Origin: Nephrocerus scutellatus
Taxonomy: Eukaryota > Arthropoda > Insecta > Diptera > Pipunculidae
Assembly (NCBI GenBank): GCA_947095585.1
Contig: OX352763.1
Coordinates: 60,483,016 to 60,547,015, forward strand
DNA length: 64,000 nt
Reading direction: 5' to 3'
Every line of letters starts with the position of its first letter. The first letter of the stretch is position 1. Positions 1-64,000 of the stretch are shown here, piece after piece. Below the pieces are notes generated by a model. The model ran no database searches. It saw nothing but the letters and a program-made list of their open reading frames with translations, and was not told the origin of the DNA. The translations under genes were made by a program, and so were the position numbers.

Positions 1-396
1 CATTATCACATCACATTATATATAAATTATTTATAAGCGAATTTTAATGTTCTTAACCACTAACTGTGAAGTTGTTGCATATTGCATATTACTGCCCAAA
101 CACAGTAATGCAGCTTTTGGTTTCAACTCACATACACACATGATCATCAATCACATCACATACAACAGAATAAATAATTTATAAGCTGATTTAAATGTTC
201 ATAACAATTTATTGTGAGGTGGGTACATATTAAATATATCATATCACTGCACAAACATAGTAATGCAGTTGCGTCGATAGTAGTAGGAGAAGTAAGAGCT
301 GTTAAAAAATATGTGCGTGTAATTTTTACGCGCGGTTGGTGTGAAATTCTTTGACGTTGTGGCCAATATTACGATTAAATTAAAAGGCACGAGTCG
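1..396 (+). repeat. Core 0, 3' end only (cut by window edge)
   Basis: This stretch matches the last ~400 bases of the complete cores, for example 7047-7442. It contains the diverged tandem pair (two AGTAATGCAG-containing segments) and ends at GGCACGAGTCG, after which the degenerate edge monomer of the satellite starts. No coding potential is visible. The integrase part lies outside the window. Confidence 0.9.
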
Positions 397-2870
397 CTTG
401 AGAAATTGCTTAGTTCCCGAAATTCCAGACCATAATGATCATATTCCAGAATTCCCATAGGAAGAAGTCTTATAGTCGCATATTAGTCCTACATTCCGAG
501 TTTCATACGAATCCCTTGAGAAATGGCTTGGTTCCAAAAATCCCAGACCCTATTGGCCAGATCCCAGAATTTCCATAGGAACAAGTCTTATAGTCACATA
601 TTAGTCCTATATTCCGAGTTTCATTCGAATCCCTTGAGAAATGGCTTGGTTCCAAAAATCCCAGACCCTATTGGCCAGATCCCAGAATTTCCATAGGAAC
701 AAGTCTTATAGTCACATATTAGTCCTACATTCCGAGTTTCATACGAATCCCTTGAGAAATGGCTTGGTTCCAAAAATCCCAGACCCTATTGGCCAGATCC
801 AATAATTTCCATAGGAACAAGTCTTATAGTCACATATTAGTCCTACATTCCGAGTTTCATACGAATCCCTTGAGAAATGGCTTGGTTCCAAAAATCCCAG
901 ACCCCATTGGCCAGATCCCAGAATTTCCATAGGAACAAGTCTTATAGTCACATATTAGTCCTACATTCCGAGTTTCATACGAATCCCTTGAGAAATGGCT
1001 TGGTTCCAAAAATCCCAGACCCTATTGGCCAGATCCCAGAATTTCCATAGGAACAAGTCTTATAGACACATATTAGTCCTTCATTCCGAGTTTCATACGA
1101 ATCCCTTGAGAAATGGCTTGGTTCCAAAAATCCCAGACCCTATTGGCCAGATCCCAGAATTTCCATAGGAACAAGTCTTATAGTCACATATTAGTCCTAC
1201 ATTCCGAGTTTCATACGAATCCCTTGAGAAATAGCTTGGTTCCAAAAATCCCAGACCCTATTGGCCAGATCCCAGAATTTCCATAGGAACAAGTCTTATA
1301 GTCACATATTAGTCCTACATTCCGAGTTTCATACGAATCCCTTGAGAAATGGCTTGGTTCCAAAAATCCCAGACCCTATTGGCCAGATCCCAGAATTTCC
1401 ATAGGAACAAGTCTTATAGTCACATATTAGTCCTACATTCCGAGTTTCATACGAATCCCTTGAGAAATGGCTTGGTTCCAAAAATCCCAGACCCTATTGG
1501 CCAGATCCAATAATTTCCATAGGAACAAGTCTTATAGTCACATATTAGTCCTACATTCCGAGTTTCATACGAATCCCTTGAGAAATGGCTTGGTTCCAAA
1601 AATCCCAGACCCTATTGGCCAGATCCCAGAATTTCCATAGGAACAAGTCTTATAGACACATATTAGTCCTTCATTCCGAGTTTCATACGAATCCCTTCAG
1701 AAATGGCTTGGTTCCAAAAATCCCAGACCCTATTGGCCAGATCCCAGAATTTCCATAGGAACAAGTCTTATAGTCACATATTAGTCCTACATTCCGAGTT
1801 TCATACGAATCCCTTGAGAAATGGCTTGGTTCCAAAAATCCAAGACCCCATTGGCAAGATCCCAGAATTTCCATAGGAACAAGTCTTATAGTCACATATT
1901 AGTCCTACATTCCGAGTTTCATACGAATCACTTGAGAAATGGCTTCGTTCCAAAAATCCCAGACCCTATTGGCCAGATCCCAGAATTTCCATAGGAACAA
2001 GTCTTATAGACACATATTAGTCCTTCATTCCGAGTTTTATACGAATCCCTTGAGAAATGGCTTGGTTCAAAAAATCCCAGACCCTATTGGCCAGATCCCA
2101 GAATTTCCATAGGAACAAGTCTTATAGTCACATATTAGTCCTACATTCCGAGTTTCATATGAATCCCTTGAGAAATGGCTTGGTTCCAAAAATCCCAGAC
2201 CCCATTGGCCAGATCCCAGAATTTCGATAGGAACAAGTCTTATAGTCACATATTAGTCCTACATTCCCAGTTTCATACGAATCCCTTGAGAAATGGCTTG
2301 GTTCCAAAAATCCCAGACCCTATTGGCCAGATCCCAGAATTTCCATAGGAACAAGTCTTATAGTCACATATTAGTCCTACATTCCGAGTTTCATACGAAT
2401 CCCTTGAGAAATGGCTTGGTTCCAAAAATCCCAGATCCTATTGGCCAGATCCCAGAATTTCCATAGGAACAAGTCTTATAGTCAGATATTAGTCCTACAT
2501 TCCGAGTTTCATACGAATCCCTTGAGAAATGGCTTGGTTCCACAAATCCCAGAACCCTATTGGCCAGATCCCAGAATTTCCATAGGAACAAGTCTTATAG
2601 TCACATATTAGTCCTACATTCCGAGTTTCATGCGAATCTCTTGGGAAATGGCTTGGTTCCAAAAATCCCAGACCCTATTGGCCAGACCCCAGAATTTCCA
2701 TAGGAACAAGTCTTATAGTCACATATTAGTCCTACATTCCGAGTTTCATACGAATCCCTTGAGAAATGGCTTGGTTCCAAAAATCCCAGACCCTATTGGC
2801 CAGATCCAATAATTTCCATAGGAACAAGTCTTATAGTCACATATTAGTCCTACATTCCGAGTTTCATACG
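397..2870 (+). repeat. 118-bp satellite block 0 (~21 monomers)
   Basis: Tandem head-to-tail monomers of 118 bp: successive ATTCCGAGTTTCAT motifs at 493, 611 and onward are 118 bases apart. The first monomer is degenerate (GCTTAGTTCCCGAA, AATGATCATATTCC). The block ends inside a monomer at TTTCATACG before the TATGTCTCG junction. Several monomers have the AGATCCAATAATTT variant instead of AGATCCCAGAATTT. One monomer near 2630 is the ATGCGAATCTCTTGGG subtype that dominates beyond 33 kb. Short open frames on both strands are by-products of the repeat and are not called as genes. Confidence 0.97.
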
Positions 2871-2893
2871 TATGTCTCGTAACAGTGTCTCGC

Positions 2894-2947
2894 AACAGTG
2901 TGAGCACTTTTAACAGTGTGAGCACTCCAAACAGTGTGAGCACTTCT
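2894..2947 (+). repeat. 18-bp minisatellite, three copies
   Basis: Three head-to-tail 18-bp units of the form AACAGTGTGAGCACTNNN at 2894-2911, 2912-2929 and 2930-2947, followed by a broken fourth unit. The same triple is in core 4 (11753-11806) and, mutated, in core 11 (62759-62812). The other cores keep a single unit. Confidence 0.85.
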
Positions 2948-3010
2948 AACAGTGTATCACTTAACATTTGACTTTTTGAAAAAGCACCCCATATACCTTG
3001 TAGTCAGACG

Positions 3011-3725
3011 TTGTCACATCAAAAGGGAAACTTAACTGTAACGCAGACACCCTATGTAGAATCAAACACAATAACCCAAATACTTTTTACTCCATCGACA
3101 TTAACATAAATGACATCTCTACAACAGTTTTAGGTACAGGAGGTACAACAGTGCATTTTGCATACGAAAATTTAAATGACGGAATACCAATTTCAGAAAA
3201 ACCCTTAAATAAATTTAATCTTCAAATTATCTTATAAAAAGGAATGAATGAACACCTACAACAACCGATATTATTTTTAAAAACAAGCAACGCAAAACAA
3301 TACAACAACAAATTTTTACTGAAGAAAACATGACAGATATATTAAAACATAATCCAGCACCGAACAAACTCACAGCCATTTTTACTTATGACGAAACTTT
3401 CCGTATTGCACAATCAACTTATTCTTAACATTTTGCTCAAAATAAAATTTTTCGACTTATAAAATGCACAGACCTACTAAAGGACATACAATCATATGAC
3501 GAACAGGATCAGAAAATTAATGAATATCATGAGAATAATAACCACCGTGGAATAAACGAAACACTATAACACTTAAAAAGTAAATACTACTTTCCTTTTA
3601 TGAAAACAAAAATAACACAGACAATAAATAACTGCGAAAGATGTCAGCTTCTCAAATATGGCAGATTACCCCCAAAAAAAACCGAAAATCCTATAAAATT
3701 CAATAACGAACATGACATCAATTAA
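3011..3725 (+). pseudogene. Ty3/Gypsy pol remnant, integrase core deleted (core 1)
   Basis: The RNase H C-terminal signature G-K-x-N-x-x-A-D is present at the start, and the HHCC zinc-binding region remains near 3525-3650. The sequence then jumps from the segment after the A-rich run straight to the last codons of integrase, losing all three acidic catalytic residues. The in-frame stop in TATTCTTAACATT and a second stop (CTTATAAAAAGG) are present. It cannot encode a functional enzyme. The flanks of the deletion match core 4. Confidence 0.85.
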
Positions 3726-4571
3726 ATTAATACAAAGAAATATTATACCCGGAAATTAAAATTAAAATATTCCTTTTGTTATATTCGCATCCGATACTGA
3801 AGCATTCATTTATTCAGATCATTCTTGTCCACCGGTTGAATTGGACTGTGTCGCGTTGGTTTTCTAATAATTATAAATCATTAGATTTTGATAAGTTTAA
3901 ATTCGTTATCATAAGTTTTGATTAAATTCGTACTTAATTATAAATAAATTTTATAAATATATAAATTAATAATAAATATTAAATAAAAAAAAGAACAGGG
4001 TAGGCTGTGTCGAAGACACGGCCGTGGGTTTTGAGCGTGACAACGTCTGTCTGGGACGAAATAAAAGAAAACAAAGATCTTGTTGTCTGTGGGACATAAA
4101 CACGGACGGATATATAAAAAAAATGTCTATACTAAATACAAGTCCTACGACTGGCACCGTAGCTCATCACATACATCATTATCACATCACATTATATATA
4201 AATTATTTATAAGCGAATTTTAATGTTCTTAACCACTAACTGTGAAGTTGTTGCATATTGCATATTACTGCCCAAACACAGTAATGCAGCTTTTGGTTCA
4301 ACTCACATACACACATGATCATCAATCACATCACATACAACAGAATAAATAATTTATAAGCTGATTTAAATGTTCATAACAATTTATTGTGAGGTGGGTA
4401 CATATTAAATATATCATATCACTGCACAAACATAGTAATGCAGTTGCGTCGATAGTAGTAGGAGAAGTAAGAGCTGTTAAAAAATATGTGCGTGTAATTT
4501 TTACGCGCGGTTGGAGTGAAATTCTTTGACGTTGTGGCCAATATTACGATTAAATTTAAAGGCACGAGTCG

Positions 4572-5274
4572 CTTGAGAAATTGCTTAGTTCCCGAAATTC
4601 CAGACCATAATGATCATATTCCAGAATTCCCATAGGAAGAAGTCTTATAGTCGCATATTAGTCCTACATTCCGAGTTTCATACGAATCCCTTGAGAAATG
4701 GCTTGGTTCCACAAATCCCAGACCCTGTTGGCCAGATCCCAGAATTTCCATAGGAACAAGTCTTATAGTCACATATTAGTCCTAGATTCCGAGTTTCATA
4801 CGAATCCCTTGAGAAATGGCTTGGTTCCAAAAATCCCAGACCCTATTGGTCATATCCCAGAATTTCCATAGGAACAAGTCTTATAGTCACATATTAGTCC
4901 TACATTCCGAGTTTCATACGAATCCCTTGAGAAATGGCTTGGTTCCAAAAATCCCAGACCCTATTGGCCAGATCCCAGAATTTCCATAGGAACAAGTCTT
5001 ATAGTCACATATTAGTCCTATATTCCGAGTTTCATACGAATCCCTTGAGAAATGGCTTGGTTCCAAAAATCCCAGACCCTATTGGCCAGATTCCAGAATT
5101 TCCATAGGAACAAGTCTTATAGTCACATATTAGTCCTACATTCCGAGTTTCATACGAATCCCTTGAGAAATGGCTTGGTTCCAAAAATCCCAGACCCTAT
5201 TGGCCAGATCCAATAATTTCCATAGGAACAAGTCTTATAGTCACATATTAGTCCTACATTCCGAGTTTCATACG
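4572..5274 (+). repeat. 118-bp satellite block 1 (~6 monomers)
   Basis: Begins with the degenerate edge monomer and ends at TTTCATACG/TATGTCTCG as in block 0. From about 4687 the monomers match 19657 onward base for base wherever compared, including rare variants (CTAGATTCC, TTGGTCATATCCC). This marks the left end of a long duplicated segment. Confidence 0.96.
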
Positions 5275-5380
5275 TATGTCTCGTAACAGTGTCTCGCAAC
5301 AGTGTGAGCACTTCTAACAGTGTATCACTTAACATTTGACTTTTTGAAAAAGCACCCCATATACCTTGTAGTGAGACGTT

Positions 5381-6583
5381 GTCACGTCAAAAGGGAAACT
5401 TAACTGTAACGCAGACACCCTAAGAAGAATCAAACACAATAACCCAAATACTTTTTACCCCATCGACATTAACATAAATGACATTTCTACAACAGTTTTA
5501 GCTACAGTTTAGCTAACAGTGCATTCTGCATACGAAAATTTAAATGACGGAATACCAATTTCAGAAAAACCCTTAAATGAATTTAATCTTCAAATTATCT
5601 TACAAAAAGGAATGAATGAACACCTACAACAACCGAAATAATTTTGAAAAACAAGCAACGCAAAACAATACAACAACAAATTTTTACTGAAGAAAACATG
5701 ACAGGTATATTAAAACATAATCCAGCACCGAACAAACTCACAGCCCTTTTTACTAATGACGAAACTTTCCGTATTGTACAATCAACTTATTCTTAACATT
5801 TTGCTCAAAATAAAATTTTTCGACTTATAAAATGCGCAGACCTACTAAAGGACATACAATCAAATGACGAACAGGATCAGATATTAAATGAATATCATGA
5901 GAATAATAACCACCGTGGAATAAACGAAACACTATTACACTTAAAAAGTAAATACTACTTTCCTTTTATGAAAACGAAAATAACACAGACAATAAATAAC
6001 TGCGAAAGATGTCAGCTTCTCAAATATGGCAGATTACCCAAAAAAAAAACCCGAAAATCCTGTTAAACCCCTTGATATACTGCATATAGATGTTTACACT
6101 ATCAACCACACAACTATATTGACAATTATCGACAAATTCTCAAAATTCGCCTCAGCGTATACATTAACAGGAAGAAACAGTATCTCAATATTAAAATCAA
6201 TTCAACATTATATTAGCTTACATGGGTTATCTAATAAACTGATTTGCGATCTCGGTTCCGAATTTTCAAGTAATATATTTAAAGACTTTTGTAATCAATT
6301 CGACATAAATTTGCATTTCACTTCCTTTCAACAAACTTCCAGTAACGCCGCAGTAGAACGACTTCACTCGACTCCCACAGAAATCTATAGAATTATAACA
6401 GCAAAACGGAAAGAAAAAAATTTAGGCCTAGACCATGAAGAAATTATGACAGAAACAATTATAACATACAATAATGCAATTCATTCTTTAACAAAATTTA
6501 CCCCCTATGAGTTATTTTATGGGAGAACTCATAAATTCAATAAAAACATAAAATTCAATAACGAACATGACTACATCAATTAA
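5381..6583 (+). pseudogene. Ty3/Gypsy pol remnant: RNase H tail plus integrase (core 2)
   Basis: In the parent element this region would have inserted retroviral-type cDNA into the genome. It starts with the RNase H C-terminal signature KGKLNCNADTLRRI (K at 5390). An integrase zinc-binding domain follows, with H-x5-H and C-x2-C (NCERC) around 5900-6015. The catalytic core then shows D in LHIDVY, D in ICDLGSEF and E in AAVERLHS; D and E are separated by 35 residues (DD35E). It ends at HDYIN-stop. Breaks: stop TAA at 5794-5796, further stops upstream, and a ten-A run at ~6040 that puts the zinc domain and catalytic core in different frames. No gag, protease or main RT domain is present. Within Ty3/Gypsy I cannot place the clade firmly. 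Confidence 0.9.
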
Positions 6584-6791
6584 ATTAATACAAAGAAATA
6601 TTATACCCGGAAATTAAAATTAAAATATTCCTTTTGTCATATTCGCAGCCGATACTGAAGCATTCATTTATTCAGATCATTCTTGTCCACCGGTTGAATT
6701 GGACTGTGTCGCGTTGGTTTTCTAATAATTATAAATCATTAGATTTTGATAAGTTTAAATTCGTTACCATAAGTTTTGATTAAATTCGTAC

Positions 6792-6860
6792 TTAATTATA
6801 ATTAATAATAAATAAATTATATAAATATATAAATTAATAATAAATATTAAATAAAAAAAA
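6792..6860. other. AT-only tract, 69 bp
   Basis: Sixty-nine consecutive bases without G or C, made of TAATAAATA-like words and ending in an A run. A corresponding tract lies at the same place in every complete core, somewhat shorter in cores 1 and 4. It sits 10 bases before the conserved hairpin. Function unknown; such tracts can be easily unwound or attach to the nuclear matrix, but nothing here proves either. Confidence 0.85.
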
Positions 6861-6870
6861 GAGCAGGGTA

Positions 6871-6891
6871 GGCTGTGTCGAAGACACGGCC
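6871..6891 (+). other. Conserved hairpin next to the AT tract
   Basis: GGCTGTGTC and GACACGGCC form a 9-bp stem (one G-T wobble) around a GAA loop. The right arm overlaps the perfect palindrome CACGGCCGTG. The same 21 bases occur in all cores that include this region, for example at 4003-4023. It may be a remnant of an LTR/UTR structural element; this is inference. Confidence 0.7.
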
Positions 6892-7092
6892 GTGGGTTTT
6901 GAGCGTGAAAACGTCTGTCTGGGACGAAAGAAAAGAAAACAAAGAACTTGTTGTCTGTGGGACATAAACACGGACGGATATATTAAAAAAAATTTCTATA
7001 CTAAATACAAGTCCTACGACTGGCACCGTAGCTCATCACATACATCATCATCACATCACATTATATATAAATTATTTATAAGCGAATTTTAA
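6892..7092 (+). other. Recurrent 66-codon open frame without ATG (probably not a gene)
   Basis: The frame opens at GTG right after the hairpin. It would encode a basic, Cys/His-containing peptide (RKKRKQRTCC near residues 12-21, a His/Ser-rich stretch near 44-55). It recurs at 10001, 16000, 18514, 21862, 25209, 46766, 61017 and 63688, and is altered in cores 1 and 4. It contains no internal ATG and has no family I recognise. Its persistence is explained by recent amplification of the core, so I do not call a CDS. Confidence 0.4.
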
Positions 7093-7320
7093 TGTTCTTA
7101 ACCACTAACTGTGAAGTTGCTGCATATTGCATATTACTGCCCAAACACAGTAATGCAGCTTTTGGTTTCAACTCACATACACACATGATCATCAATCACA
7201 TCACATACAACAGAATAAATAATTTATAAGCTGATTTAAATGTTCATAACAATTTATTGTGAGGTGGGTACATATTAAATATATCATATCACTGCACAAA
7301 CATAGTAATGCAGATGCGTC
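7046..7320 (+). repeat. Diverged tandem pair, period ~145-155 bp
   Basis: Two similar segments follow each other. TCACATCACA occurs at 7051 and 7196. AAATTATTTATAAGC parallels AATAATTTATAAGC. CACAGTAATGCAG at 7146 parallels CATAGTAATGCAG at 7301. The copies differ by many substitutions and small indels, so the duplication is old. It is present in every core at the same place, just before the satellite. Confidence 0.75.
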
Positions 7321-7442
7321 GATAGTAGTAGGAGAAGTAAGAGCTGTTAAAAAAATATGTGCGTGTAATTTTTACGCGCGGTTGGAGTGAAATTCTTTGA
7401 CGTTGTGGTCAATATTACGATTAAATTAAAAGGCACGAGTCG

Positions 7443-8386
7443 CTTGAGAAATTGCTTAGTTCCCGAAATTCCAGACCATATCATCATATTCCAGAATTCC
7501 CATAGGAAGAAGTCTTATAGTCGCATATTAGTCCTACATTCCGAGTTTCATACGAATCCCTTGAGAAATGGCTTGGTTCCAAAAATCCCAGACCCTATTG
7601 GCCAGATCCCAGAATTTCCATAGGAACAAGTCTTATAGTCACATATTAGTCCTACATTCCGAGTTTCATACGAATCCCTTGAGAAATGGCTTGGTTCCAA
7701 AAATCCCAGACCCTCTTGGCCAGATCCCAGAATTTCCATAGGAACAAGTCTTATAGTCACATATTAGATATTAGTCCTACATTCCGAGTTTCATACGAAT
7801 CCCTTGAGAAATGGCTTGGTTCCAAAAATCCCAGACCCTATTGGCCAGATCCAATAATTTCCATAGGAACAAGTCTTATAGTCACATATTAGTCCTACAT
7901 TCCGAGTTTCATACGAATCCCTTGAGAAATGGCTTGGTTCAAAAATCCCAGACCCAATTGGCCAGATCCCAGAATATCCAAAGGAACAAGTCTTATAGTC
8001 ACATATTAGTCCTACATTCCGAGTTTCATACGAATCCCTTGAGAAATGGCTTGGTTCCAAAAATCCCAGACCCTATTGGCCAGATCCCAGAATTTCCATA
8101 GGAACAAGTCTTATAGTCACATATTAGTCCTATATTCCGAGTTTCATACGAATCCCTTGAGAAATGGCTTGGTTCCAAAAATCCCAGACCCTATTGGCCA
8201 GATCCCAGAATTTCCATAGGAACAAGTCTTATAGTCACATATTAGTCCTACATTCCGAGTTTCATACGAATCCCTTGAGAAATGGCTTGGTTCCAAAAAT
8301 CCCAGACCCTATTGGCCAGATCCAATAATTTCCATAGGAACAAGTCTTATAGTCACATATTAGTCCTACATTCCGAGTTTCATACG
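7443..8386 (+). repeat. 118-bp satellite block 2 (~8 monomers)
   Basis: Standard junctions at both ends. The third monomer carries a 7-bp internal duplication (ATTAGATATTAG at ~7765). The same marker appears at about 10873, 19384, 22735, 26085, 27145 and 29398, and helps trace copied segments. Confidence 0.96.
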
Positions 8387-10551
8387 TATGTCTCGTAACA
8401 GTGTCTCGCAACAGTGTGAGCACTTCTAACAGTGTATCACTTAACATTTGACTTTTTGAAAAAGCACCCCATATACCTTGTAGTGAGACGTTGTCACGTC
8501 AAAAGGGAAACTTAACTGTAACGCAGACACCCTAAGAAGAATCAAACACAATAACCCAAATACTTTTTACCCCATCGACATTAACATAAATGACATTTCT
8601 ACAACAGTTTTAGCTACAGTTTAGCTAGCAGTGCATTCTGCATACGAAAATTTAAATGACGGAATACCAATTTCAGAAAAACCCTTAAATGAATTTAATC
8701 TTCAAATTATCTTACAAAAAGGAATGAATGAACACCTACAACAACCGAAATAATTTTGAAAAACAAGCAACGCAAAACAATACAACAACAAATTTTTACT
8801 GAAGAAAACATGACAGATATATTAAAACATAATCCAGCACCGAACAAACTCACAGCCATTTTTACTAATGACGAAACTTTCCGTATTGTACAATCAACTT
8901 ATTCTTAACATTTTGTTCAAAATAAAATTTTTCGACTTATAAAATGCACAGACCTACTAAAGGACATACAATCAAATGACGAACAGGATCAGATTAAATG
9001 AATATCATGAGAATAATAACCACCGTGGAATAAACGAAACACTATTACACTTAAAAAGTAAATACTACTTTCCTTTTATGAAAACGAAAATAACACAGAC
9101 AATAAATAACTGCTAAAGATGTCAGCTTCTCAAATATGGCAGATTACCCAAAAAAAACTCCGAAAATCCTGTTAAACCCCTTGATATACTGCATATAGAT
9201 GTTTACACTATCAACCACACAACTATATTGACAATTATCGACAAATTCTCAAAATTCGCCTCAGCGTATACATTAACAGGAAGAAACAGTATCTCAATAT
9301 TAAAATCAATTCAACATTATATTAGCTTACATGGGTTACCTAATAAACTGATTTGCGATCTCGGTTCCGAATTTTCAAGTAATATATTTAAAGACTTTTG
9401 TAATCAATTCGACATAAATTTGCATTTCACTTCCTTTCAACAAACTTCCAGTAACGCCGCAGTAGAACGACTTCACTCGACTCTAACAGAAATCTATAGA
9501 ATTATAACAGCAAAACGGAAAGAAAAAAATTTAGGCCTAGACCATGAAGAAATTATGACAGAAACAATTATAACATACAATAATGCAATTCATTCTTTAA
9601 CAAAATTTACCCCCTATGAGTTATTTTATGGGAGAACTCATAAATTCAATAAAAACATAAAATTCAATAACGAACATGACTACATCAATTAAATTAATAC
9701 AAAGAAATATTATACCCGGAAATTAAAATTAAAATATTCCTTTTGTCATATTCGCAGCCGATACTGAAGCATTCATTTATTCAGATCATTCTTGTCCACC
9801 GGTTGAATTGGACTGTGTCGCGTTGGTTTTCTAATAATTATAAATCATTAGATTTTGATAAGTTTAAATTCGTTACCATAAGTTTTGATTAAATTCGTAC
9901 TTAATTATAATTAATAATAAATAAATTATATAAATATATAAATTAATAATAAATATTAAATAAAAAAAAGAGCAGGGTAGGCTGTGTCGAAGACACGGCC
10001 GTGGGTTTTGAGCGTGAAAACGTCTGTCTGGGACGAAAGAAAAGAAAACAAAGAACTTGTTGTCTGTGGGACATAAACACGGACGGATATATTAAAAAAA
10101 ATTTCTATACTAAATACAAGTCCTACGACTGGCACCGTAGCTCATCACATACATCATCATCACATCACATTATATATAAATTATTTATAAGCGAATTTTA
10201 ATGTTCTTAACCACTAACTGTGAAGTTGCTGCATATTGCATATTACTGCCCAAACACAGTAATGCAGCTTTTGGTTTCAACTCACATACACACATGATCA
10301 TCAATCACATCACATACAACAGAATAAATAATTTATAAGCTGATTTAAATGTTCATAACAATTTATTGTGAGGTGGGTACATATTAAATATATCATATCA
10401 CTGCACAAACATAGTAATGCAGATGCGTCGATAGTAGTAGGAGAAGTAAGAGCTGTTAAAAAAATATGTGCGTGTAATTTTTACGCGCGGTTGGAGTGAA
10501 ATTCTTTGACGTTGTGGTCAATATTACGATTAAATTAAAAGGCACGAGTCG
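8387..10551 (+). repeat. Core 3 (2165 bp)
   Basis: Same layout as core 2. It shares with core 6 a diagnostic nonsense mutation in the integrase zinc-binding domain, and its flanking satellite also matches that of core 6 with an offset of ~8513 bases. The segment from its 3' part into block 3 also matches core 2/block 2 at an offset of 3109. Confidence 0.9.
8491..9692 (+). pseudogene. Ty3/Gypsy RNase H tail plus integrase remnant (core 3)
   Basis: The same domains are recognisable as in the core 2 remnant. A stop TAA at 9114-9116 sits between the two cysteines of the zinc-binding motif (NC-stop-RC), in addition to the stop shared by other cores (TATTCTTAACATT). A 2-bp loss near 8990 (CAGATTAAATG versus CAGATATTAAATG) shifts the frame upstream of the HHCC motif. 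The catalytic core from about 9200 to 9692 is open and keeps the D, D and E residues, but no usable start precedes the first D. Confidence 0.88.
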
Positions 10552-45235: not shown

Positions 45236-45315
45236 CTCTATTGGCCAGATCTCAGAATTTCCATAGGAACAAGTCTTATAGTCACATATTAGTCCTACAT
45301 TCTGAGTTTCATACG

Positions 45316-54529: not shown

Positions 54530-57500
54530 GATCCCAAAATTTCGATAGGAACAAGTCTTATAGTCACATATTAGTCCTACATTCCGAGTTTCATTCGAAC
54601 CCCTTCAGAAATGGCTTGGTTCCAAAAATCCCAGACCCTATTGGCCAGATCCCAGAATTTCCATACGAACAAGTCTTATAGTCACATATTAGTCCTACAT
54701 TCCGAGTTTCATACGAATCCCTTGAGAAATGGCTTGGTTCCAAAAATCCCAGATCCCATTGGCCAGATCCCAGAATTTCGATAGGAACAAGTCTTATAGT
54801 CACATATTAGTCCTACATTCCGAGTTTCATACGAATCCCTTGAGAAATGGCTTGGTTCCAAAAATCCCAGACCCTATTGGCCAGATCCCAGAATTTCCAT
54901 AGGAACAAGTCTTATAGTCACATATTAGTCCTACATTCAGAGTTTCATGCGAATCTCTTGGGAAATGGCATGGTTCCAAAAATCCCAGACCCTATTGGCC
55001 AGATCCCAGAATTTCCATAGGAACAAGTCTTATAGTCACATATTAGTCCTACATTCCGAGTTTCATACGAATCCCTTGATAAATGGCTTGGTTCCAAAAA
55101 TCCCAGACCCTATTAGCCAGATCCCAGAATTTCCATAGGAGCAAGTCTTATAGTCACATATTAGTCCTACATTCCGAGTTTCATACGAATCCCTTGAGAA
55201 ATGGCTTGGTTCCAAAAATCCCAGACCCTATTGGCCAGATCCAATAATTTCCATAGGAACAAGTCTTATAGTCACATATTAGTCCTACATTCCGAGTTTC
55301 ATACGAATCCCTTGAGAAATGGCTTGGTTCCAAAAATCCCAGACCCCATTGGCCAGATCCCAAAATTTCGATAGGAACAAGTCTTATAGTCACATATTAG
55401 TCCTACATTCCGAGTTTCATACGAATCCCTTGAGAAATGGCTTGGTTCCAAAAATCCCAGACCCTATTGGCCAGATCCCAGAATTTCCATACGAACAAGT
55501 CTTATAGTCACATATTAGTCCTACATTCCGAGTTTCATACGAATCCCTTGAGAAATGGCTTGGTTCCAAAAATCCCAGATCCCATTGGCCAGATCCCAGA
55601 ATTTCGATAGGAACAAGTCTTATAGTCACATATTAGTTACATTCCGAGTTTCATACGAATCCCTTGAGAAATGGCTTGGTTTCAAAAATCCCAGACCCTA
55701 TTGGCCAGATCCCAGAATTTCCATAAGAACAAGTCTTATAGTCACATATTAGTCCTACATTCCGAGTTTCATGCCAATCTCTTGGGAAATGGCATGGTTC
55801 CAAAAATCCCAGACCCTATTGGCCAGATCCCAGAATTTCCATAGGAACAAGTCTTATAGTCACATATTAGTCCTACATTCCGAGTTTCATACGAATCCCT
55901 TGAGAAATGGCTTGGTTCCTAAAATCCCAGACCCCATTGGCCAGATCCCAGAATTTCGATAGGAACAAGTCTTATAGTCACATATTAGTCCTACATTCCG
56001 AGTTTCATACGAATCCCTTGAGAAATGGCTTGGTTCCAAAAATCCCAGACCCTATTGGCCAGATCCCAGAATTTCCATAGGAACAAGTCTTATAGTCACA
56101 TATTAGTCCTACATTCCGAGTTTCATGCGAATCTCTTGGGAAATGGCATGGTTCCAAAAATCCCAGACCCTATTGGCCGGATCCCAAAATTTCCATAGGA
56201 ACAAGTCTTAGAGTCACATATTTGTCCTACATTTCGAGTTTCATACGAATCCCTTGAGAAATGGCTTGGTTCCAAAAATCCCAGACCCTATTGGCCAGAT
56301 CCCAGAATTTCCATAGGAACAAGTCTTATAGTCACATATTAGTCCTACATTCCAAGTTTTATACGAATCCCTTGAGAAATGGCTTGGTTCCAAAAATCCC
56401 AGACCCTATTGGCCAGATCCCAGAATTTCCATAGGAACAAGTCTTATAGTCACATATTAGTCCTACATTCCAAGTTTTATACGAATCCCTTGAGAAATGG
56501 CTTGGTTCCAAAAATCCCAGACCCTATTGGCCAGATCCCAGAATTTCCATAGGAACAAGTCTTATAGTCACATATTAGTCCTACATTCCAAGTTTTATAC
56601 GAATCCCTTGAGAAATGGCTTGGTTCCAAAAATCCCAGATCCTATTGGCCAGATCCAAGAATTTCCATAGGAACAAGTCTTATAGTCACATATTAGTCCT
56701 ACATTCCGAGTTTCATACGAATCCCTTGAGAAATGGCTTGGTTCCAAAAATCCCAGACCCTATTGGCCAGATCCCAGAATTTCCATAGGAACAAGTCTTA
56801 TAGTCACATATTAGTCCTACATTCCGAGTTTCATACGAATCCCTTGAGAAATGGCTTGGTTCCAAAAATCCCAGACCCTATTGGCCAGATCCCAGAATTT
56901 CCATAGGAACAAGTCTTATAGTCACATATTGGTCCTACATTTCGAGTTTCATACGAATCCCTTAAGAAATGGCTTGGTTCCAAAAATCCCAGACCCTATT
57001 GGCCAGATCCCAGAATTTCCATAGGAACAAGTCTTATAGTCACATATTAGTCCTACATTCCAAGTTTTATACAAATCCCTTGAGAAATGGCTTGGTTCCA
57101 AAAATCCCAGATCCTATTGGCCAGATCCAAGAATTACCATAGGAACAAGTCTTATAGTCACATATTAGTCCTACATTCCGAGTTTCATACGAATCCCTTG
57201 AGAAATGGCTTGGTTCCAAAAATCCCAGACCCTATTGGCCAGATCCCAGAATTTCCATAGGAACAAGTCTTATAGTCACATATTAGTCCTACATTCCGAG
57301 TTTCATACGAATCCCTTGAGAAATGACTTGGTTCCAAAAATCCCAGACCCTATTGGCCAGATCCCAGAATTTCCATAGGACCAAGTCTTATAGTCACATA
57401 TTAGTCCTACATTTCGAGTTTCATGCGAATCTCTTGGGAAATGGCTTGGTTCCAAAAATCCCAGACCCTATTGGCCAGATCCCAGAATTTCCATAGGAAC

Positions 57501-58253
57501 AAGTCTTATAGTCACATATTAGTCCTACATTCCGAGTTTCATATGAATCCCTTGAGAAATGGCTTGGTTCCAAAAATCCCAGACCCTATAGGCCAGATCC
57601 AATAATTTCCATAGGAACAAGTCTTATAGTCACATATTAGTCCTACATTCCTAATTTCATACGAATCCCTTGAGAAATGGCTTGGTTCCAAAAATCCCAG
57701 ACCCCATTGGCCAGATCCCAAAATTTCGATAGGAACAAGTCTTATAGTCACATATTAGTCCTACATACCGAGTTTCATACGAATCCCTTGAGAAATGGCT
57801 TGGTTCCAAAAATCCCAGACCCTATTGGCCAGATCCCAGAATTTCCATACGAACAAGTCTTATAGTCACATATTAGTCCTACATTCCGAGTTTCATACGA
57901 ATCCCTTGAGAAATGGCTTGGTTCCAAAAATCCCAGATCCCATTGGCCAGATCCCAGAATTTCTATAGGAACAAGTCTTATAGTCACATATTAGTCCTAC
58001 CTTCCGAGTTTCATACGAATCCCTTGAGAAATGGCTTGGTTCCAAAAATCCCAGACCCTATTGGCCAGATCCCAGAATTTCCATAGGAACAAGTCTTATA
58101 GTCACATATTAGTCCTACATTCCGAGTTTCATGCGAATCTCTTGGGAAATGGCATGATTCCAAAAATCCCAGACCCTATTGGCCAGATCCCAGAATTTCC
58201 ATAGGAACAAGTCTTATAGTCACATATTAGTCCAACATTCCGAGTTTCATACG
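54530..58253 (+). repeat. 118-bp satellite block 9, right of the LINE
   Basis: Resumes at GATCCCAAAATTTCG in monomer phase. A local run at 56340-57080 carries CCAAGTTTTATAC variants repeated at 118-bp steps. ATTAGTTACATTCC (55635) is shared with the 1178-bp segment to the left of the LINE, so the insertion is in the middle of one lineage of monomers. It ends at TTTCATACG before CGAATGTCTCG-type core 10. Confidence 0.95.
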
Positions 58254-58360
58254 AATGTCTCGTAATAGTGTCTCGCAACAGTGTGAGCACTTCTAACAGT
58301 GTATCACTTAACATTTGACTTTTTTAAAAAGCACCCCTTATACCTTGTAGTGAGACGTTG

Positions 58361-59118
58361 TCACGTCAAAAGGGAAACTTAACTGTAACGCAGACACCCT
58401 AACTAGAATCAAACACAATAACCCAAATACTTTTTACCCCATCGACATTAACATAAATGACATTTCTACAACAGTTTTAGGTACAGGAGGTACAACAGTG
58501 CATTCTGCATACGAAAATTTAAATGACGGAATACCAATTTCAGAAAAACCCTTAAATGAATTTAATCTTCAAATTATCTTACAAAAAGGAATGAATGAAC
58601 ACCTACAACAACCGAAATAATTTTTAAAAACAAGCAACGCAAAACAACGCAAATAAAATTTTTCGACTTATAAAATGCACAGACCTACTAAAGGACATAC
58701 AATCAAATGACGAACAGGATCAGATAATAAATGAATATCATGAGAATAATAACCACCGAGGAATAAACGAAACACTATTACACTTAAAAAGTAAATACTA
58801 CTTTCCTTTTATGAAAACAAAAATAACACAGACAATAAATAACTGCGAAAGATGTCAGCTTCTCAAATATGGCAGATTACCCCAAAAAAAACCCCGAAAA
58901 TCCTGTTAAACCCCTTGATATGCTGCATATAGATTTTTACACTATCAACCACACAACTATATTGACAATTATCGACAAATTCTCAAAATTCGCCTCAGCG
59001 TATACATTAACAGGAAGAAACAGTATCTCAATTTTAAAATCAATTCAACATTATATTATTGTACATGGGTTACCTAATAAACTGATTTGCGATCAGGGTT
59101 CCGAATTTTCAAGTAATA
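58361..59118 (+). pseudogene. Ty3/Gypsy pol remnant, left part (core 10)
   Basis: RNase H stub, HHCC region and the first two catalytic Asp (LHIDFY, ICDQGSEF) are recognisable, then the sequence is interrupted at AAGTAATA by the DNA transposon. The stretch before the insertion matches core 9 with only a difference in the C run after the A tract. Confidence 0.88.
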
Positions 59119-59140
59119 ACGGGTGTTTTTTTAAGAGGTT
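59119..59140. repeat. DD41D left terminal inverted repeat
   Basis: ACGGGTGTTTTTTTAAGAGG begins directly after the TA. It pairs with 60401-60422 with mismatches at position 2 and in the AAG/AGG word. Confidence 0.9.
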
Positions 59141-59224
59141 GCCGATTTTTTTTTTGAATAAAACACATATAAAATTATGAAATGACCAAAATTTTTTTTT
59201 ATTTGGTAGATAATTTTTTGGCAT

Positions 59225-60310
59225 TTAACATTTTAACACAATTTCTGGCATATGGCTACCACGACTATTTTTCACAAATGTCATTCTGGAGGTCCAATTT
59301 TCCAGCACTTTTTCAAGCATTTGAGGGCGTATGTCAGCAATGACACGTTGAATATTGGTTTCCAAAGCGTCAATCGATTGAGGTTTATCCACATAAACCA
59401 ATGACTTCACGTATCCCCACAAAAAGTAATCGAGTGGCGTCAAATCGCACGAACGCGGAGGCCAATTCACCGGACCATTTCTCGAAATAATGTTGTCGTT
59501 GAAAGTTTCTTTCAATAAGTCGATTGTTTCACGTGCTGTATGGCAAGTGGCACCATCTTGTTGAAACCACATTTCATCCATATCCATATCTTCAAGATTT
59601 GACAACAAAAACTCATTTAACATGGTTCTGTATCGATTTCCATTCACGGTAACGCGTCGTCCTTCCTCATTTTTAAAGAAATATGGACCGATGATCCCAC
59701 CAGCCCATAGACCGCACCAAACAGTACATTTATCAGGATGCATTGGTAATTCTTGAACGGCGTGTGGATTATCTTTGCTCCAAATGCGACAATTTTGTTT
59801 GTTGACGTATCCATTTAACAAAAAATGCGCCTCATCACTGAAGAGAATTTTACGGTAAAAAAATGGATCTTCGTTCAATTGATTTAACGACCAATCACTG
59901 AATTCACGGCGCAAACGATGGTCGTGTGGCTTTAATTCTTGCACCAATTGAATTTTGTATGGCACCAAACCCAAATCTTTACGTAAAATTTTCCATAAAG
60001 TCGATGGACAAAGTCCAATTTGCTGAGCACGACGACGAATCGATAAATTGTCGTTTTCTTCGACACTGGCCTCAACGACAGCAATATTTTCTTCTGTACG
60101 AACTCTTCTCATTCTTGTCGGTGGCTTGGCATCCAAAAGAGTGAATGTAGACCGAAATTTGGTAATTACGTTCTTTATGGTGGTCTCTGACGGACGATTA
60201 TGTGCACCATAAAATTCACGAAGTGCTCTATAAACATTTTTAATTGAACACTGATTTTGAAAATAAATTTCCACGATTTGAAAACGTTGTTCTGGAGTTA
60301 ACCTATTCAT
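59225..60310 (-). CDS. Mariner-like transposase, DD41D
   Basis: Catalyses cut-and-paste transposition of this element at TA sites in the nucleus. The frame is 361 codons from ATG 60310 to the stop at 59225, within the usual mariner range (~340-370). The open frame extends 12 codons further upstream, but only to a GTG. Residues ~1-125 hold two helix-turn-helix-like regions (TPEQRFQIVEIY; LSIRRRAQQIGLCPSTLWKILR), the expected paired-like DNA-binding domain. The catalytic core has D159 (FSDEAHF), D252 (WFQQDGATCH) and D294 (TPLDYFLWG), with 41 residues between the last two. A mariner-type WPPRSCDLTPLD block is present. There is no stop or frameshift. All three Asp are intact, so the enzyme could be active; activity itself cannot be judged from sequence. 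Confidence 0.93.
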   Translation of the reverse strand: MNRLTPEQRFQIVEIYFQNQCSIKNVYRALREFYGAHNRPSETTIKNVITKFRSTFTLLDAKPPTRMRRVRTEENIAVVEASVEENDNLSIRRRAQQIGLCPSTLWKILRKDLGLVPYKIQLVQELKPHDHRLRREFSDWSLNQLNEDPFFYRKILFSDEAHFLLNGYVNKQNCRIWSKDNPHAVQELPMHPDKCTVWCGLWAGGIIGPYFFKNEEGRRVTVNGNRYRTMLNEFLLSNLEDMDMDEMWFQQDGATCHTARETIDLLKETFNDNIISRNGPVNWPPRSCDLTPLDYFLWGYVKSLVYVDKPQSIDALETNIQRVIADIRPQMLEKVLENWTSRMTFVKNSRGSHMPEIVLKC

Positions 60311-60400
60311 AATGATTTGCCAAACAATACTGAGTAGAAATGCCACTTTGAGCTGTCAAAACAACTGTCATAAAATAAAACGACATCTATCGGAAAAACA

Positions 60401-60422
60401 AACCTCCTAAAAAAACACCCTT
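60401..60422. repeat. DD41D right terminal inverted repeat
   Basis: Reverse complement begins AAGGGTGTTTTTTTAGGAGG. It lies 91 bases upstream of the transposase ATG and is followed by the TA duplication at 60423-60424. The 60311-60400 gap is the likely promoter/5' UTR; no clear TATA box is visible. Confidence 0.9.
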
Positions 60423-60707
60423 TATATTTAAAGAATTTTGTAATCAATTCGACATAAATTTGCATTTCACTTCCTTTCAACAAACTTCCAGTAACGACTT
60501 CACTCGACTCTAACAGAAATCTATAGAATTATAACAGCAAAACGGAAAGAAAAAAAATTAGGCCTAGACCATTAAGAAATTATGACAGAAACAATTAAAA
60601 CATACAATAATGCAATTCATTCTTTAACAAAATTTGCATCCTATGAGTTATTTTATGGGATTCAATAAAAACATAAAATTCAATAACGAACACGACTACA
60701 TCAATTA
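60423..60707 (+). pseudogene. Ty3/Gypsy pol remnant, right part (core 10)
   Basis: Resumes the integrase after the transposon at TATATTTAAAGAATTTTG. The 13-bp loss at the AACG repeat (~60495), the GACCATTAAG stop and the 11-bp loss after TTTTATGGG are as in core 9. The catalytic Glu is absent. Confidence 0.88.
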
Positions 60708-61567
60708 AATTAATACAAAGAAATATTATACCCGGAAATTAAAATTAAAATATTCCTTTTGTCATATTCGCAGCCGATACTGAAGCATTCATTTATTCAG
60801 ATCATTCTTGTCCACCGGTTGAATTGGACTGTGTCGCGTTGGTTTTCTAATAATTATAAATCATTAGATTTTCATAAGTTTAAATTCGTTATCATAAGTT
60901 TTGATTAAATTCGTACTTAATTATAATTAATAATAAATAAATTATATAAATATATAAATTAATAATAAATATTAAATAAAAAAAAGAGCAGGGTAGGCTG
61001 TGTCGAAGACACGGCCGTGGGTTTTGAGCGTGAAAACGTCTGTCCGGGACGAAAGAAAAGAAAACAAAGAACTTGTTGTCTGTGGGACATAAACACGGAC
61101 GGATATATTAAAAAAAATTTCTATACTAAATACAAGTCCTACGACTGGCACCGTAGCTCATCACATACATCATCATCACATCACATTATATATAAATTAT
61201 TTATAAGCGAATTTTAATGTTCTTAACCACTAACATTGAAGTTGCTGCATATTGCATATTACTGCCCAAACACAGTAATGCAGCTTTTGGTTTTAACTCA
61301 CATACACACATGATCATCAATCACATCACATACAACAGAATAAATAATTTATAAGCTGATTTAAATGTTCATAACAATTTATTGTGAGGTGGGTACATAT
61401 TAAATATATCATATCACTGCACAAACATAGTAATGCAGTTGCGTCGATAGTAGTAGGAGAAGTAAGAGCTGTTAAAAAAATATGTGCGTGTAATTTTTAC
61501 TCGCGGTTGGAGTGAAATTCTTTGACGTTGTGGCCTATATTACGATTAAATTAAAAGGCACGAGTCG

Positions 61568-62735
61568 CTTGAGAAATTGCTTTGTTCCCGAAATTCCAGA
61601 CCATAATGATCATATTCCAGAATTCCCATAAGAAGAAGTCTTATAGTCGCATATTAGTCCTACATTCCGAGTTTCATACGAATCCCTTGAGAAATAGCTT
61701 GGTTCCAAAAATCCCAGACCCTATTGGCCAAATCCCAGAATTTCCATAGGAACAAGTCTTATAGTCACATATTAGTCCTACATTCCGAGTTTCATACGAA
61801 TCCCTTGAAAAATGGTTGGTTCCAAAAATCCCAGACCCTATTGGCCAGATCCCAGAATTTCCATAGGAACAAGTCCTATAGTCACATATTAGTCCTACAT
61901 TCCGAGTTTCATACGAATCTGTTGAGAAATGGCTTGGTTCCAAAAATCCCAGACCCTATTGGCCAGATCCCAGAATTTCCATAGGAACAAGTCTTATAGT
62001 CACATATTAGTCCTACATTCCGAGTTTCATACGAATCCCTTGAGAAATGGCTTGGTTCCAAAAATCCCAGACCCTATTGGCCAGATCCCAGAATTTCCAT
62101 AGGAACAAGTCTTATAGTCACATATTAGTCCTACATTCCGAGTTTCATACGAATCCCTTGAGAAATGGCTTGGTTCCAAAAATCCCAGACCCTATTGGCC
62201 AGATCCCAGAATTTCCATAGGAACAAGTCTTATAGTCACATATTAGTCCTACATTCCGAGTTTCATGCGAATCTCTTGGGAAATGGCTTGGTTCCAAAAA
62301 TCCCAGACCCTATTGGCCAGATCCCAGAATTTCCATAGGACCAAGTCTTATAGTCACATATTAGTCCTACATTTCGAGTTTCATGCGAATCTCTTGGGAA
62401 ATGGCTTGGTTCCAAAAATCCCAGACCCTATTGGCCAGATCCCAGAATTTCCATAGGACCAAGTCTTATAGTCACATATTAGTCCTACATTTCGAGTTTC
62501 ATGCGAATCTCTTGGGAAATGGCTTGGTTCCAAAAATCCCTATTGGCCAGATCCCAGAATTTCCATAGGAACAAGTCTTATAGTCACATATTAGTCCTAC
62601 ATTCCGAGTTTCATACGAATCCCTTGAGAAATGGCTTGGTTCCAAAAATCCCAGACCCTATTGGCCAGATCCAATAATTTCCATAGGAACAAGTCTTATA
62701 GTCACATATTAGTCCTACATTCCGAGTTTCATACG
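61568..62735 (+). repeat. 118-bp satellite block 10 (~10 monomers)
   Basis: Edge monomer with CCATAAGAAGAAG. Three consecutive monomers of the ATGCGAATCTCTTGGG type with CCATAGGACCAAG lie near 62262-62530; the last lost CAGACC (AAAATCCCTATTGG). It ends TTTCATACG/AATGTCTCG. Confidence 0.95.
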
Positions 62736-62878
62736 AATGTCTCGTAACAGTGTCTCGCAACAGTGTGAAAACTTTTAACAGTGTGAGCACTCCAAACAAT
62801 GTGAGCACTTCTAACAGTGTATAACTTAACATTTGACTTTTTGAAAAAGCACCCCATATACCTTGTAGTGAGACGTTG

Positions 62879-63448
62879 TCACGTCAAAAGGGAAACTTAA
62901 CTGTAACGCAGACACCCTAAGAAGAATCAAACACAATAACCCAAATACTTTTTACCCCATCGACATTAACATAAATGACATTTCTACAACAGTTTTAGGT
63001 ACAGGAGGTACAACAGTGCATTCTGCATACGAAAATTTAAATGACGGACGGTGTTATAGTCACATATTAGTTCTACATTCCGAGTTTCATACGAATCCCT
63101 TGAGAAATGGCTTGGTTCCAAAAATCCCAGACGAAAATTTAAATGACGGAATACCAATTTCAGAAAAACCCTTAAATTAATTTAATCTTCAAATTATCTT
63201 ACAAAAAGGAATGAATGCACACCTACAACAACCGAAATAATTTTGAAAAACAAGCAACGCAAAACAATACAACAACAAATTTTTACTGAAGAAAACATGA
63301 CAGCACCGAACAAACTCACAGCAATTTTTACTAATGACGAAACTTTCCGTATTGTACAATCAACTTATTCTTAACATTTTGCTCCACATAAAATTTTTCG
63401 ACTTATAAAATGCACAGACCTACTAAAGGACATACAATCAAATGACGA
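62879..63448 (+). pseudogene. Ty3/Gypsy pol remnant without integrase domains (core 11)
   Basis: RNase H signature KGKLNCNADTLRRI near 62887-62930, then spacer broken by an inserted satellite fragment. A 24-bp loss between two CAG words at ~63303 and the stop in TATTCTTAACATT follow. Everything from the HHCC motif to the end of integrase is missing. Confidence 0.85.
63048..63131 (+). repeat. 84-bp satellite fragment inserted in pol, flanked by 18-bp direct repeats
   Basis: Bases from ~63054 to 63131 match one satellite stretch (TTATAGTCACATATTAG through CCAAAAATCCCAGA). Both sides carry CGAAAATTTAAATGACGG (63030-63047 and 63132-63149), which occurs once at this place in the other cores. The fragment is shorter than a monomer and starts with ACGGTG filler. 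Confidence 0.9.
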
Positions 63449-64000
63449 TACTGAAGCATTTATTTATTCAGATCATTCTTGTCCACCGGTTGAATTGGAC
63501 TGTGTCGCGTTGGTTTTCTAATAATTATAAATCATTAGATTTTGATAAGTTTAAATTCGTTACCATAAGTTTTGATTAAATTCGTACTTAATTATAATTA
63601 ATAATAAATAAATTATATAAATATATAAATTAATAATAAATATTAAATAAAAAAAAGAGCAGGGTAGGCTGTGTCGAAGACACGGCCGTGGGTTTTGAGC
63701 GTGACAACGTCTGTCCGGGACGAAAGAAAAGAAAACAAAGATCTTGTTGTCTGTGGGACATAAACACGGACGGATATATTAAAAAAAATTTCTATACTAA
63801 ATACAAGTCCTACGACTTGCACCGTAGCTCATCACATACATCATCATCACATCACATTATATATAAATTATTTATAAGCGAATTTTAATGTTCTTAACCA
63901 CTAACTGTGAAGTTGCTGCATATTGGATATTACTGCCCAAACACAGTAATGCAGCTTTTGGTTTCAACTCACATACACACATGATCATCAATCATATCAC

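What the first reader, a model, noticed from the sequence alone, without database searches (positions are those of the whole stretch)
1..64000. Composite array: dead Ty3/Gypsy pol core plus 118-bp satellite amplified as one unit
Ten complete cores and two partial ones all have the same orientation, the same left junction (TTTCATACG then T/A-ATGTCTCG) and the same right junction (GGCACGAGTCG then a degenerate monomer). Independent insertions would give different junctions and orientations. The core and satellite therefore multiply together, while the number of monomers per unit varies from about 3 to 166. A satellite growing inside a repeat built from retroelement remains, amplified at three nested levels, is the most unusual system in the window.
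Basis: partly seen in the sequence, partly recalled or inferred. Interest (0 to 1): 0.85.

Follow-up and report, generated by a model that had tools for sequence, protein, structure and literature searches.

The report
Satellite array seeded by two transposons
In a fly genome, two copies of a mobile element that carries its own satellite DNA landed in the same dead retroelement, and exchange between them most likely multiplied the stretch in between into a 12-unit composite array whose founding insertions can both still be read.

Summary
The "core" is not a retroelement unit in which a satellite grew. Its left ~120-155 bp and right ~590 bp are the two ends of a dispersed Helentron-like (DINE-1/HINE) transposon that carries the 118-bp satellite in its middle. 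The pol part between them is host DNA: RNase H tail, integrase and LTR piece of a dead Ty3/Gypsy copy. The array (C3:60475768-60564826, about 89 kb) has 13 elements and 12 gypsy spacers. Its outermost ends differ from the inner ones and mark two separate founding insertions. A lies in RNase H: the left flank ends ...YEIVYK and spacers resume KGKLN.... B lies in an LTR. Both pre-insertion sites are found elsewhere in the genome. The inner junctions are A's right end and B's left end, as unequal exchange between the A and B satellites predicts. The spacer junction occurs 12 times genome-wide, all here; the element's 5' end 2,175 times and a monomer piece 40,495 times. A second array of the same form, with an unrelated spacer, lies on C1. 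This is an unusually complete case of a known kind of process.

The parts
1..3024 (-). HINE-like element, first in the window (true 5' end on the right at 3024; 3' part begins at -184, outside the window), 21 monomers
3025..3991 (+). gypsy spacer (RNase H tail-integrase-LTR fragment), deleted copy, subgroup alpha
3992..5392 (-). element, 6 monomers
5393..6859 (+). gypsy spacer, subgroup beta; 0 substitutions against the spacer at 20363
6860..8504 (-). element, 8 monomers
8505..9968 (+). gypsy spacer, beta
9969..11883 (-). element, 10 monomers
11884..13336 (+). gypsy spacer, alpha
13337..14501 (-). element, 4 monomers
14502..15967 (+). gypsy spacer, beta; reference copy; integrase H2C2 (over cut-off) and rve (31.8 bits, just under its cut-off of 32.6) in the 14906-15688 frame
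15968..17016 (-). element, 3 monomers; 3' hairpin in 15968-16040, subterminal inverted repeat motif at each end (one substitution in the 3' copy)
17017..18481 (+). gypsy spacer, beta
18482..20362 (-). element, 10 monomers
20363..21829 (+). gypsy spacer, beta
21830..23710 (-). element, 10 monomers
23711..25176 (+). gypsy spacer, beta
25177..45433 (-). element whose satellite spans about 166 monomer lengths, with higher-order repeats
45434..46733 (+). gypsy spacer, subgroup gamma (internal deletion about core 411-532)
46734..58371 (-). element with a long satellite, interrupted by a LINE
51493..54528 (+). later LINE insertion (endonuclease and RT domains, A-tail) in the satellite; not part of the unit
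58372..60984 (+). gypsy spacer, gamma, interrupted by a mariner-type insertion
59119..60422 (-). later mariner-type insertion (376-aa open frame with DUF4817 helix-turn-helix), similar inverted ends and apparent TA duplication by eye
60985..62889 (-). element, 10 monomers
62890..63655 (+). gypsy spacer, deleted; holds a satellite fragment at about 63051-63132 between 20-bp direct repeats
63656..64000 (-). start of the rightmost element (founder B side), which continues to 81811 with about 147 monomers

Best explanation
A non-autonomous Helentron (DINE-1/HINE type) with a central 118-bp satellite inserted twice, in the same orientation, into one dead Ty3/Gypsy copy. Copy A went into the RNase H coding region and copy B into the LTR downstream, now 1.46 kb apart. 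Because both carry homologous satellite arrays, misaligned exchange between them duplicated the interval. Every new unit therefore has A's right (5') end, the gypsy spacer, B's left (3') end and a hybrid satellite. Repeated exchange made 12 spacers. The satellite blocks kept changing in length (3 to 166 monomers) and gained higher-order repeats. Shown: the element, both insertion sites, the two junction types and the distinct outer ends. Inferred: that the exchange was unequal crossing-over rather than break-induced replication or another homologous recombination route, and the order of events.
For: (1) In all 20 fetched dispersed copies (of 29 left-end hits outside the window) monomer sequence lies left of core 1-117, and 13 of the 20 also show a piece of core 1903-2166 beyond the monomers. 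19 of 20 have a recognisable right terminus ending GTCAAAA or a one-base variant, followed by unrelated flanks (best pair 25 of 60 identical); the 20th, L022, is cut short. (2) The left flank of the leftmost element is gypsy RT/RNase H ending ...YEIVYK, while inner spacers begin KGKLNCNADTL. The 4 paralogous gypsy copies fetched, of the 5 at 93-94% identity, read straight across this site. (3) In 6 of 6 fetched LTRs the B-left and B-right flanks follow each other; best on the right is the LTR at C3:60461273 (left flank 92% over 239 columns, right flank 37 of 38). (4) A's 3' end differs from the 12 other array 3' ends by 4.4-6.6% and from six dispersed copies by 3.0-6.0%; the 12 differ from each other by at most 3.5% (L021 and L024 left out). 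(5) A ~775-bp internal stretch is missing in 12 of 12 non-leftmost array elements and in 0 of 8 dispersed copies that have both neighbouring pieces. (6) The first monomer is B-type in 12 of 12 non-leftmost blocks and different in the leftmost. The last monomer of the leftmost block (CCAATAATTTCC form) recurs in 8 of 11 inner blocks and not in the rightmost. (7) The rightmost 5' end differs from the inner ones at 5-7 of 63 aligned sites and in the segment upstream. (8) The spacer junction is found 12 of 12 here.
Against: The interior monomers do not show one clean A/B switch: block-specific 31-mers are mixed in the long blocks, and in short blocks the B signal comes mostly from the first monomer. 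Three of 11 inner blocks lack the A-type last monomer. The present right end of founder A (-1648) shares its two substitutions with only 2 inner right ends (3024, 11883); the other 9 have the form seen in dispersed copies (7) or a variant of it (2), so changes after founding must be assumed, and the right end alone is not diagnostic. No reads were available to verify unit order. The LTR at C3:60461273 is taken as the same gypsy copy's 5' LTR by position only. The seven dispersed copies without a core 1903-2166 piece were not explained; some run off the fetched 10 kb.
Confidence: 0.87

Rival explanations
1. One reading: a dead gypsy core is the founding unit, a satellite arose inside it, and both were amplified together.
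For: Same orientation and same junctions in all window units; the spacer junction is unique to this array.
Against: The monomer piece exists in 40,495 copies and the element 5' end in 2,175 on both strands, while the spacer junction exists 12 times. Gypsy copies of the same family lack the element at this site in 4 of 4 fetched.
Confidence: 0.04
2. A single Helentron insertion replicated by rolling circle past its terminator, took flanking gypsy DNA along and was integrated as a concatemer.
For: Helitrons are known to make tandem arrays this way (review PMC12628747, passages); the unit starts at the element's 3' terminus.
Against: Inner left ends lack ~775 bp that the leftmost element has, and are 4.4-6.6% different from it. 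The outermost right end is of another subtype and its flank continues the LTR. The two B flanks are adjacent at empty sites, so the spacer's end is an insertion point and not a read-through stop.
Confidence: 0.04
3. Many independent insertions of the element into gypsy or LTR copies that were already tandemly repeated.
For: The element sits in A/T runs and is abundant.
Against: Twelve identical insertion points at both junctions, with the private ~775-bp deletion in 12 of 12.
Confidence: 0.02
4. Assembly artefact (false or collapsed repeats).
For: Long arrays are hard to assemble and no reads could be checked; spacers 5393 and 20363 are identical.
Against: No N in the 104 kb. Spacers fall into three groups 2.8-3.8% apart, with private deletions and private TE insertions. 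The genome paper gives QV 64.7. Exact unit number remains untested.
Confidence: 0.03

Closest known systems
HINE / DINE-1 non-autonomous Helentrons with central tandem repeats (Drosophila, mite, Culex; PMC4067079 and PMC2374699, passages seen)
   Same: 13-bp subterminal inverted repeats, 3' hairpin, T-run target, no target duplication, central tandem repeats
   Different: Not compared by sequence with published families; 118-bp central repeat; an autonomous partner with the same ends was not shown
Cg_HINE elements of Crassostrea gigas (PMC7492417, passages seen)
   Same: Satellite-like central repeats spread genome-wide by Helentrons
   Different: Here two insertions also seeded a composite array that includes foreign flanking DNA
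Double-insertion model of TE-derived satellites (McGurk and Barbash 2018; seen only as described in passages of PMC12628747)
   Same: Two insertions of one family provide the substrate for tandem expansion
   Different: The two insertions are 1.46 kb apart, the exchange substrate is the element's own satellite, and the interval between is amplified
Co-amplification of satellites with adjacent TEs in rye (PMC4857426, passages seen)
   Same: Satellite arrays with retroelement fragments multiplied together
   Different: In the passages seen the satellite is not described as part of a transposon; here founder insertions and empty sites are identified
Calliphora vicina Helitron2_Cv/Helitron3_Cv (PMC3630058, passages seen)
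   Same: DINE1-like Helitrons in a higher fly
   Different: Those carry short GTCT/GTCY-type protosatellites; no 118-bp repeat in the passages seen

Membership tests
HINE/DINE-1 (non-autonomous Helentron) | subterminal inverted repeats of about 11-15 bp | tested here: met
   5' TTTTGA-CGTGACAACGTCT and inverted 3' copy of the same 13-mer, exact at both ends in dispersed copies such as L016, L017 and L018; one substitution in the 3' copy of the window reference unit and of founder A. The 5' 13-mer is exact in 16 of 19 dispersed copies
HINE/DINE-1 (non-autonomous Helentron) | 3' subTIR about 38-60 bp from the 3' end and a palindrome about 8-35 bp from it | tested here: met
   44 nt plus the T-run; hairpin with GTGTC-TTC-GACAC stem predicted, about 11 nt from the end; criteria from passages of PMC4067079
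HINE/DINE-1 (non-autonomous Helentron) | insertion in T-runs without target duplication | tested here: met
   Empty sites for A (4 of 4 fetched paralogues) and B (6 of 6 fetched LTRs), both in A/T-runs; the run makes the exact base ambiguous
HINE/DINE-1 (non-autonomous Helentron) | central tandem repeats between two end modules | tested here: met
   20 of 20 fetched dispersed copies have at least one monomer match beside the right module, two of them (L015, L021) only one; 13 of 20 show part of the left module too
HINE/DINE-1 (non-autonomous Helentron) | autonomous Helentron partner with the same ends in the genome | tested here: inconclusive
   Helitron_like_N gave 151 matches, 150 of 622 candidates having been scored; 0 of 8 fetched 3.5-kb loci hold the subTIR at <=1 mismatch, but the flanks are too short to reach element ends
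Double-insertion origin of a tandem array | two distinguishable same-orientation insertions at the array's outer ends | tested here: met
Double-insertion origin of a tandem array | a clear switch from B-type to A-type repeats inside each inner satellite block | tested here: inconclusive
   Edges fit (12/12 left, 8/11 right); interiors mixed
Ty3/Gypsy LTR retrotransposon (spacer) | integrase zinc finger and core domain | tested here: met
   PF17921 1.9e-14 and PF00665 1.8e-7 (under its cut-off) in one copy; PF00665 2.5e-10, 41 bits against a cut-off of 32.6, in a second copy
Ty3/Gypsy LTR retrotransposon (spacer) | complete gag-pol between two LTRs | tested here: not met
   The unit holds only an RNase H tail, integrase and part of an LTR

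The most novel reading that the evidence does not exclude
Satellite-carrying Helentrons act genome-wide as portable recombination handles: wherever two lie in the same orientation, their internal satellites can convert the DNA between them, whatever it is, into a new composite satellite. A second array on C1 (45.848-45.903 Mb) has a passenger 38-mer found 9 times in the genome, all there and all exact; 8 of the 9 lie 13 bp (one of them 11 bp) from an element 5' end listed, and the ninth is joined to one at 1 mismatch. That array was not read far enough to prove two founders.
Probability: 0.5. Interest if true: 0.7.

Novelty: new variant of a known kind. Interest (0 to 1): 0.55.

Why it matters
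How a dispersed transposon becomes, or drags its neighbours into, a satellite is usually inferred from end products. Here both founding insertions, matching pre-insertion sites, the hybrid inner units and a second case remain in one assembly, so the double-insertion route can be tested and dated directly. It also offers a way by which any sequence, genes included, could be turned into a composite tandem array in a genome with some two thousand such element ends.

Tried and rejected
Rejected: a plant origin (my first guess from genome size and contig number); the transposon content and the six chromosome lengths point to the fly Nephrocerus scutellatus. Rejected: a terminal-inverted-repeat transposon; the inverted repeat is subterminal on the left, and there is no target duplication. 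Rejected: the 11-mer GGCACGAGTCG as a genome-wide marker; it is too short (643 hits against 78 for the control). Led nowhere: the A/B switch inside satellite blocks by 31-mers; subTIRs beside Helitron Rep domains. In one search, L021 and L024 gave meaningless 27-52% distances because the end finder hit a rearranged copy; they are left out of the divergence figures. In the right-end comparison, L022 has no value (cut short), and L009, L012 and L024 are compared poorly because they are rearranged there. One search's spacer table was wrong for two units, because the left-end pattern missed a base change; it was redone. The 5'-end and 3'-end genome counts (2,175 and 926) use patterns of different length and are not directly comparable.
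Full report
The window carries 11 left and 11 right core ends with constant junctions on one strand, 118-bp arrays of 3 to about 166 monomers, and longer-period structure inside and above them. Fetching 20 kb on each side shows the array's limits: window coordinates -7247 to 81811, C3:60475768-60564826, about 89 kb, with 13 satellite blocks and 12 spacers. No N is present in these 104 kb.

The source is an insect. The six chromosome lengths equal those published for Nephrocerus scutellatus, a pipunculid fly: 142.24, 129.18, 119.92, 100.35, 94.73 and 26.91 Mb (passages of PMC11252644; contig lengths).

The key result came from asking where else the core's left end occurs. A 32-mer (<=2 mismatches) has 40 hits, 11 of them in the window. 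I fetched 20 of the 29 others. In 20 of 20, monomer sequence lies to the left of core 1-117 (in L015 only a 30-bp piece; in L022 only core 1-88 is kept). In 13 of the 20 a piece of core 1903-2166 lies beyond the monomers (ten with at least 234 bp; L009, L011 and L013 with 33, 175 and 76 bp), and 10 have core ~1570-1899 further left. Nineteen of 20 have a recognisable right terminus (GTCAAAA or a one-base variant) and the flanks that follow are unrelated: best pair 25 of 60 identical, mean 29%. So core 1-117 and core ~1577-2166 are the two ends of a dispersed element with the satellite in its middle. The true 5' end is the right one: TTTTGACGTGACAACGTCT. The other end has the inverted 13-mer 44 nt plus a T-run from the terminus, and a hairpin about 11 nt from it. 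These are published features of HINE/DINE-1 elements, non-autonomous Helentrons (passages of PMC4067079 and PMC2374699). Eight dispersed copies with both left pieces have 524-801 bp between core 1899 and 1903, and the leftmost array element has 774 bp; the window units lack this stretch.

Genome counts: element 5' end 1,102 + 1,073 = 2,175; 3' end 503 + 423 = 926; a 32-base piece of the monomer 17,240 + 23,255 = 40,495, which at 118 bp each is about 4.8 Mb or 0.8% of the genome. Reversed-pattern controls gave 0 in all three. The element/gypsy junction occurs 12 times, all in this array. The LTR/element junction occurs 12 times at <=1 mismatch, all in this array, and 4 times at 3 mismatches elsewhere.

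The rest of the core is host DNA. Spacers carry an RNase H tail (motif recalled, read from the frames) and Ty3/Gypsy integrase (PF17921, PF00665), and end in an AT-rich piece that matches sequence found in pairs on either side of gypsy copies on C1, C4 and C6, hence an LTR. Relative to the C1 copy the spacer lacks about 2.1 kb between integrase and LTR (coordinates).

Two founding insertions can be identified. Left of the leftmost element the gypsy reads ...DYEIVYK; the spacers resume with KGKLNCNADTL. Four fetched gypsy copies, of five at 93-94% identity, run straight through this point. That is insertion A. The 3' (left) ends of all 12 other elements abut the LTR piece. The flank right of the rightmost element continues that LTR: 37 of 38 bp match the LTR at C3:60461273, where the two flanks lie next to each other within an A-run; in the five other fetched LTRs the two flanks also adjoin, at 84-96% on the short right side. 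That is insertion B. The LTR at C3:60461273 lies on the same strand about 14.3 kb upstream of A and is probably the 5' LTR of this very copy, with other elements nested between; this is inferred from position.

The inner units are hybrids. A's left end is 4.4-6.6% different from the other 12 left ends, while these differ by at most 3.5% from each other. The ~775-bp stretch is missing in 12 of 12 of those and in 0 of 8 dispersed copies with both neighbouring pieces. The first monomer is the same degenerate type in 12 of 12 non-leftmost blocks and different in the leftmost. The last monomer of the leftmost block recurs in 8 of 11 inner blocks and not in the rightmost. The rightmost 5' end is its own subtype. 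This is what exchange between A and B must give: A's right end, spacer, B's left end, repeated. Results that do not fit simply: 3 of 11 inner blocks do not carry the A-type last monomer; two substitutions at the leftmost right end are shared by only 2 of 11 inner right ends; and 31-mers show mixed A and B content inside long blocks. Later mutation, exchange and turnover would explain these, but that is not shown.

Spacers form three groups: alpha (-1647, 3025, 11884; <=0.69% apart), beta (six copies; <=0.82%) and gamma (45434, 58372; 0.31%), with 62890 at 2.0-3.2% from the rest. Groups differ by 2.8-3.8%. Alpha and beta are interleaved, and spacers 5393 and 20363 have no substitution between them, so multi-unit duplications or conversion happened after the groups had diverged. 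Later events are a LINE in one satellite block and a mariner-type element in one spacer.

Generality: the 5'-end list (first 100 places only) shows eight ends on C1:45.848-45.882 Mb with partly repeating spacing. The four flanks that I could fetch are identical over 110 bp. The passenger 38-mer occurs 9 times in the genome, all exact and all at C1:45.848-45.903 Mb. The element-passenger junction is found 8 times, 7 exact and 1 with one mismatch; the ninth passenger lies 11 instead of 13 bp from its element end. So a second, unrelated passenger was co-amplified with the same element. Whether it also had two founders is untested.

Literature: Helentrons that carry and spread satellite-like repeats, and double insertion as a seed of tandem arrays, are described (passages of PMC7492417 and PMC12628747). 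Searches for 'Nephrocerus scutellatus' with 'satellite DNA' and for 'Pipunculidae' with 'Helitron' gave no paper, and ten listed for 'Helentron', 'unequal crossing', 'satellite', 'co-amplified' (listing only) were not opened except PMC12628747; the library holds open PMC papers only. The labels jockey-like, mariner-type and the RNase H motif are recalled; the Pfam domains are.

Noticed in passing
63029-63150: An approximately 80-bp piece of the satellite sits inside the gypsy spacer between two 20-bp direct copies of spacer sequence, like a satellite fragment inserted with a target duplication or by templated break repair.
   Followed up: partly
59119-60422: Mariner-type insertion with a 376-aa uninterrupted frame (DUF4817 helix-turn-helix), similar inverted ends and an apparent TA duplication by eye; an exact 14-mer inverted-repeat scan found none.
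   Followed up: partly
51493-54528: LINE with endonuclease and RT domains and an A-tail inserted in a monomer; by eye 8 bp of the monomer are missing at the site and no target duplication is seen.
   Followed up: partly
G000 C4:62506810-62531974 and C2:66224312-66236116: Helitron Rep-domain matches recur at regular spacing (about 8,217-8,227 bp and 5,637 bp), suggesting tandem arrays of autonomous Helitrons.
   Followed up: no
L029, about window -8800 to -7900: Upstream of founder A the gypsy RT region is preceded by what looks like the 3' part of another LTR retroelement with an env-like tail and a purine-rich tract (read by eye).
   Followed up: no
81812-83600 (L032): Right of founder B's LTR remnant follows a stretch that looks by eye like LINE ORF1 coding sequence.
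   Followed up: no
64231-81604: The rightmost satellite block has its best monomer similarity at lag 13 (also 25-26 and 38), a higher-order repeat of about 1.5 kb, different from the lag 25 of the 25.8-45.3 kb block.
   Followed up: partly
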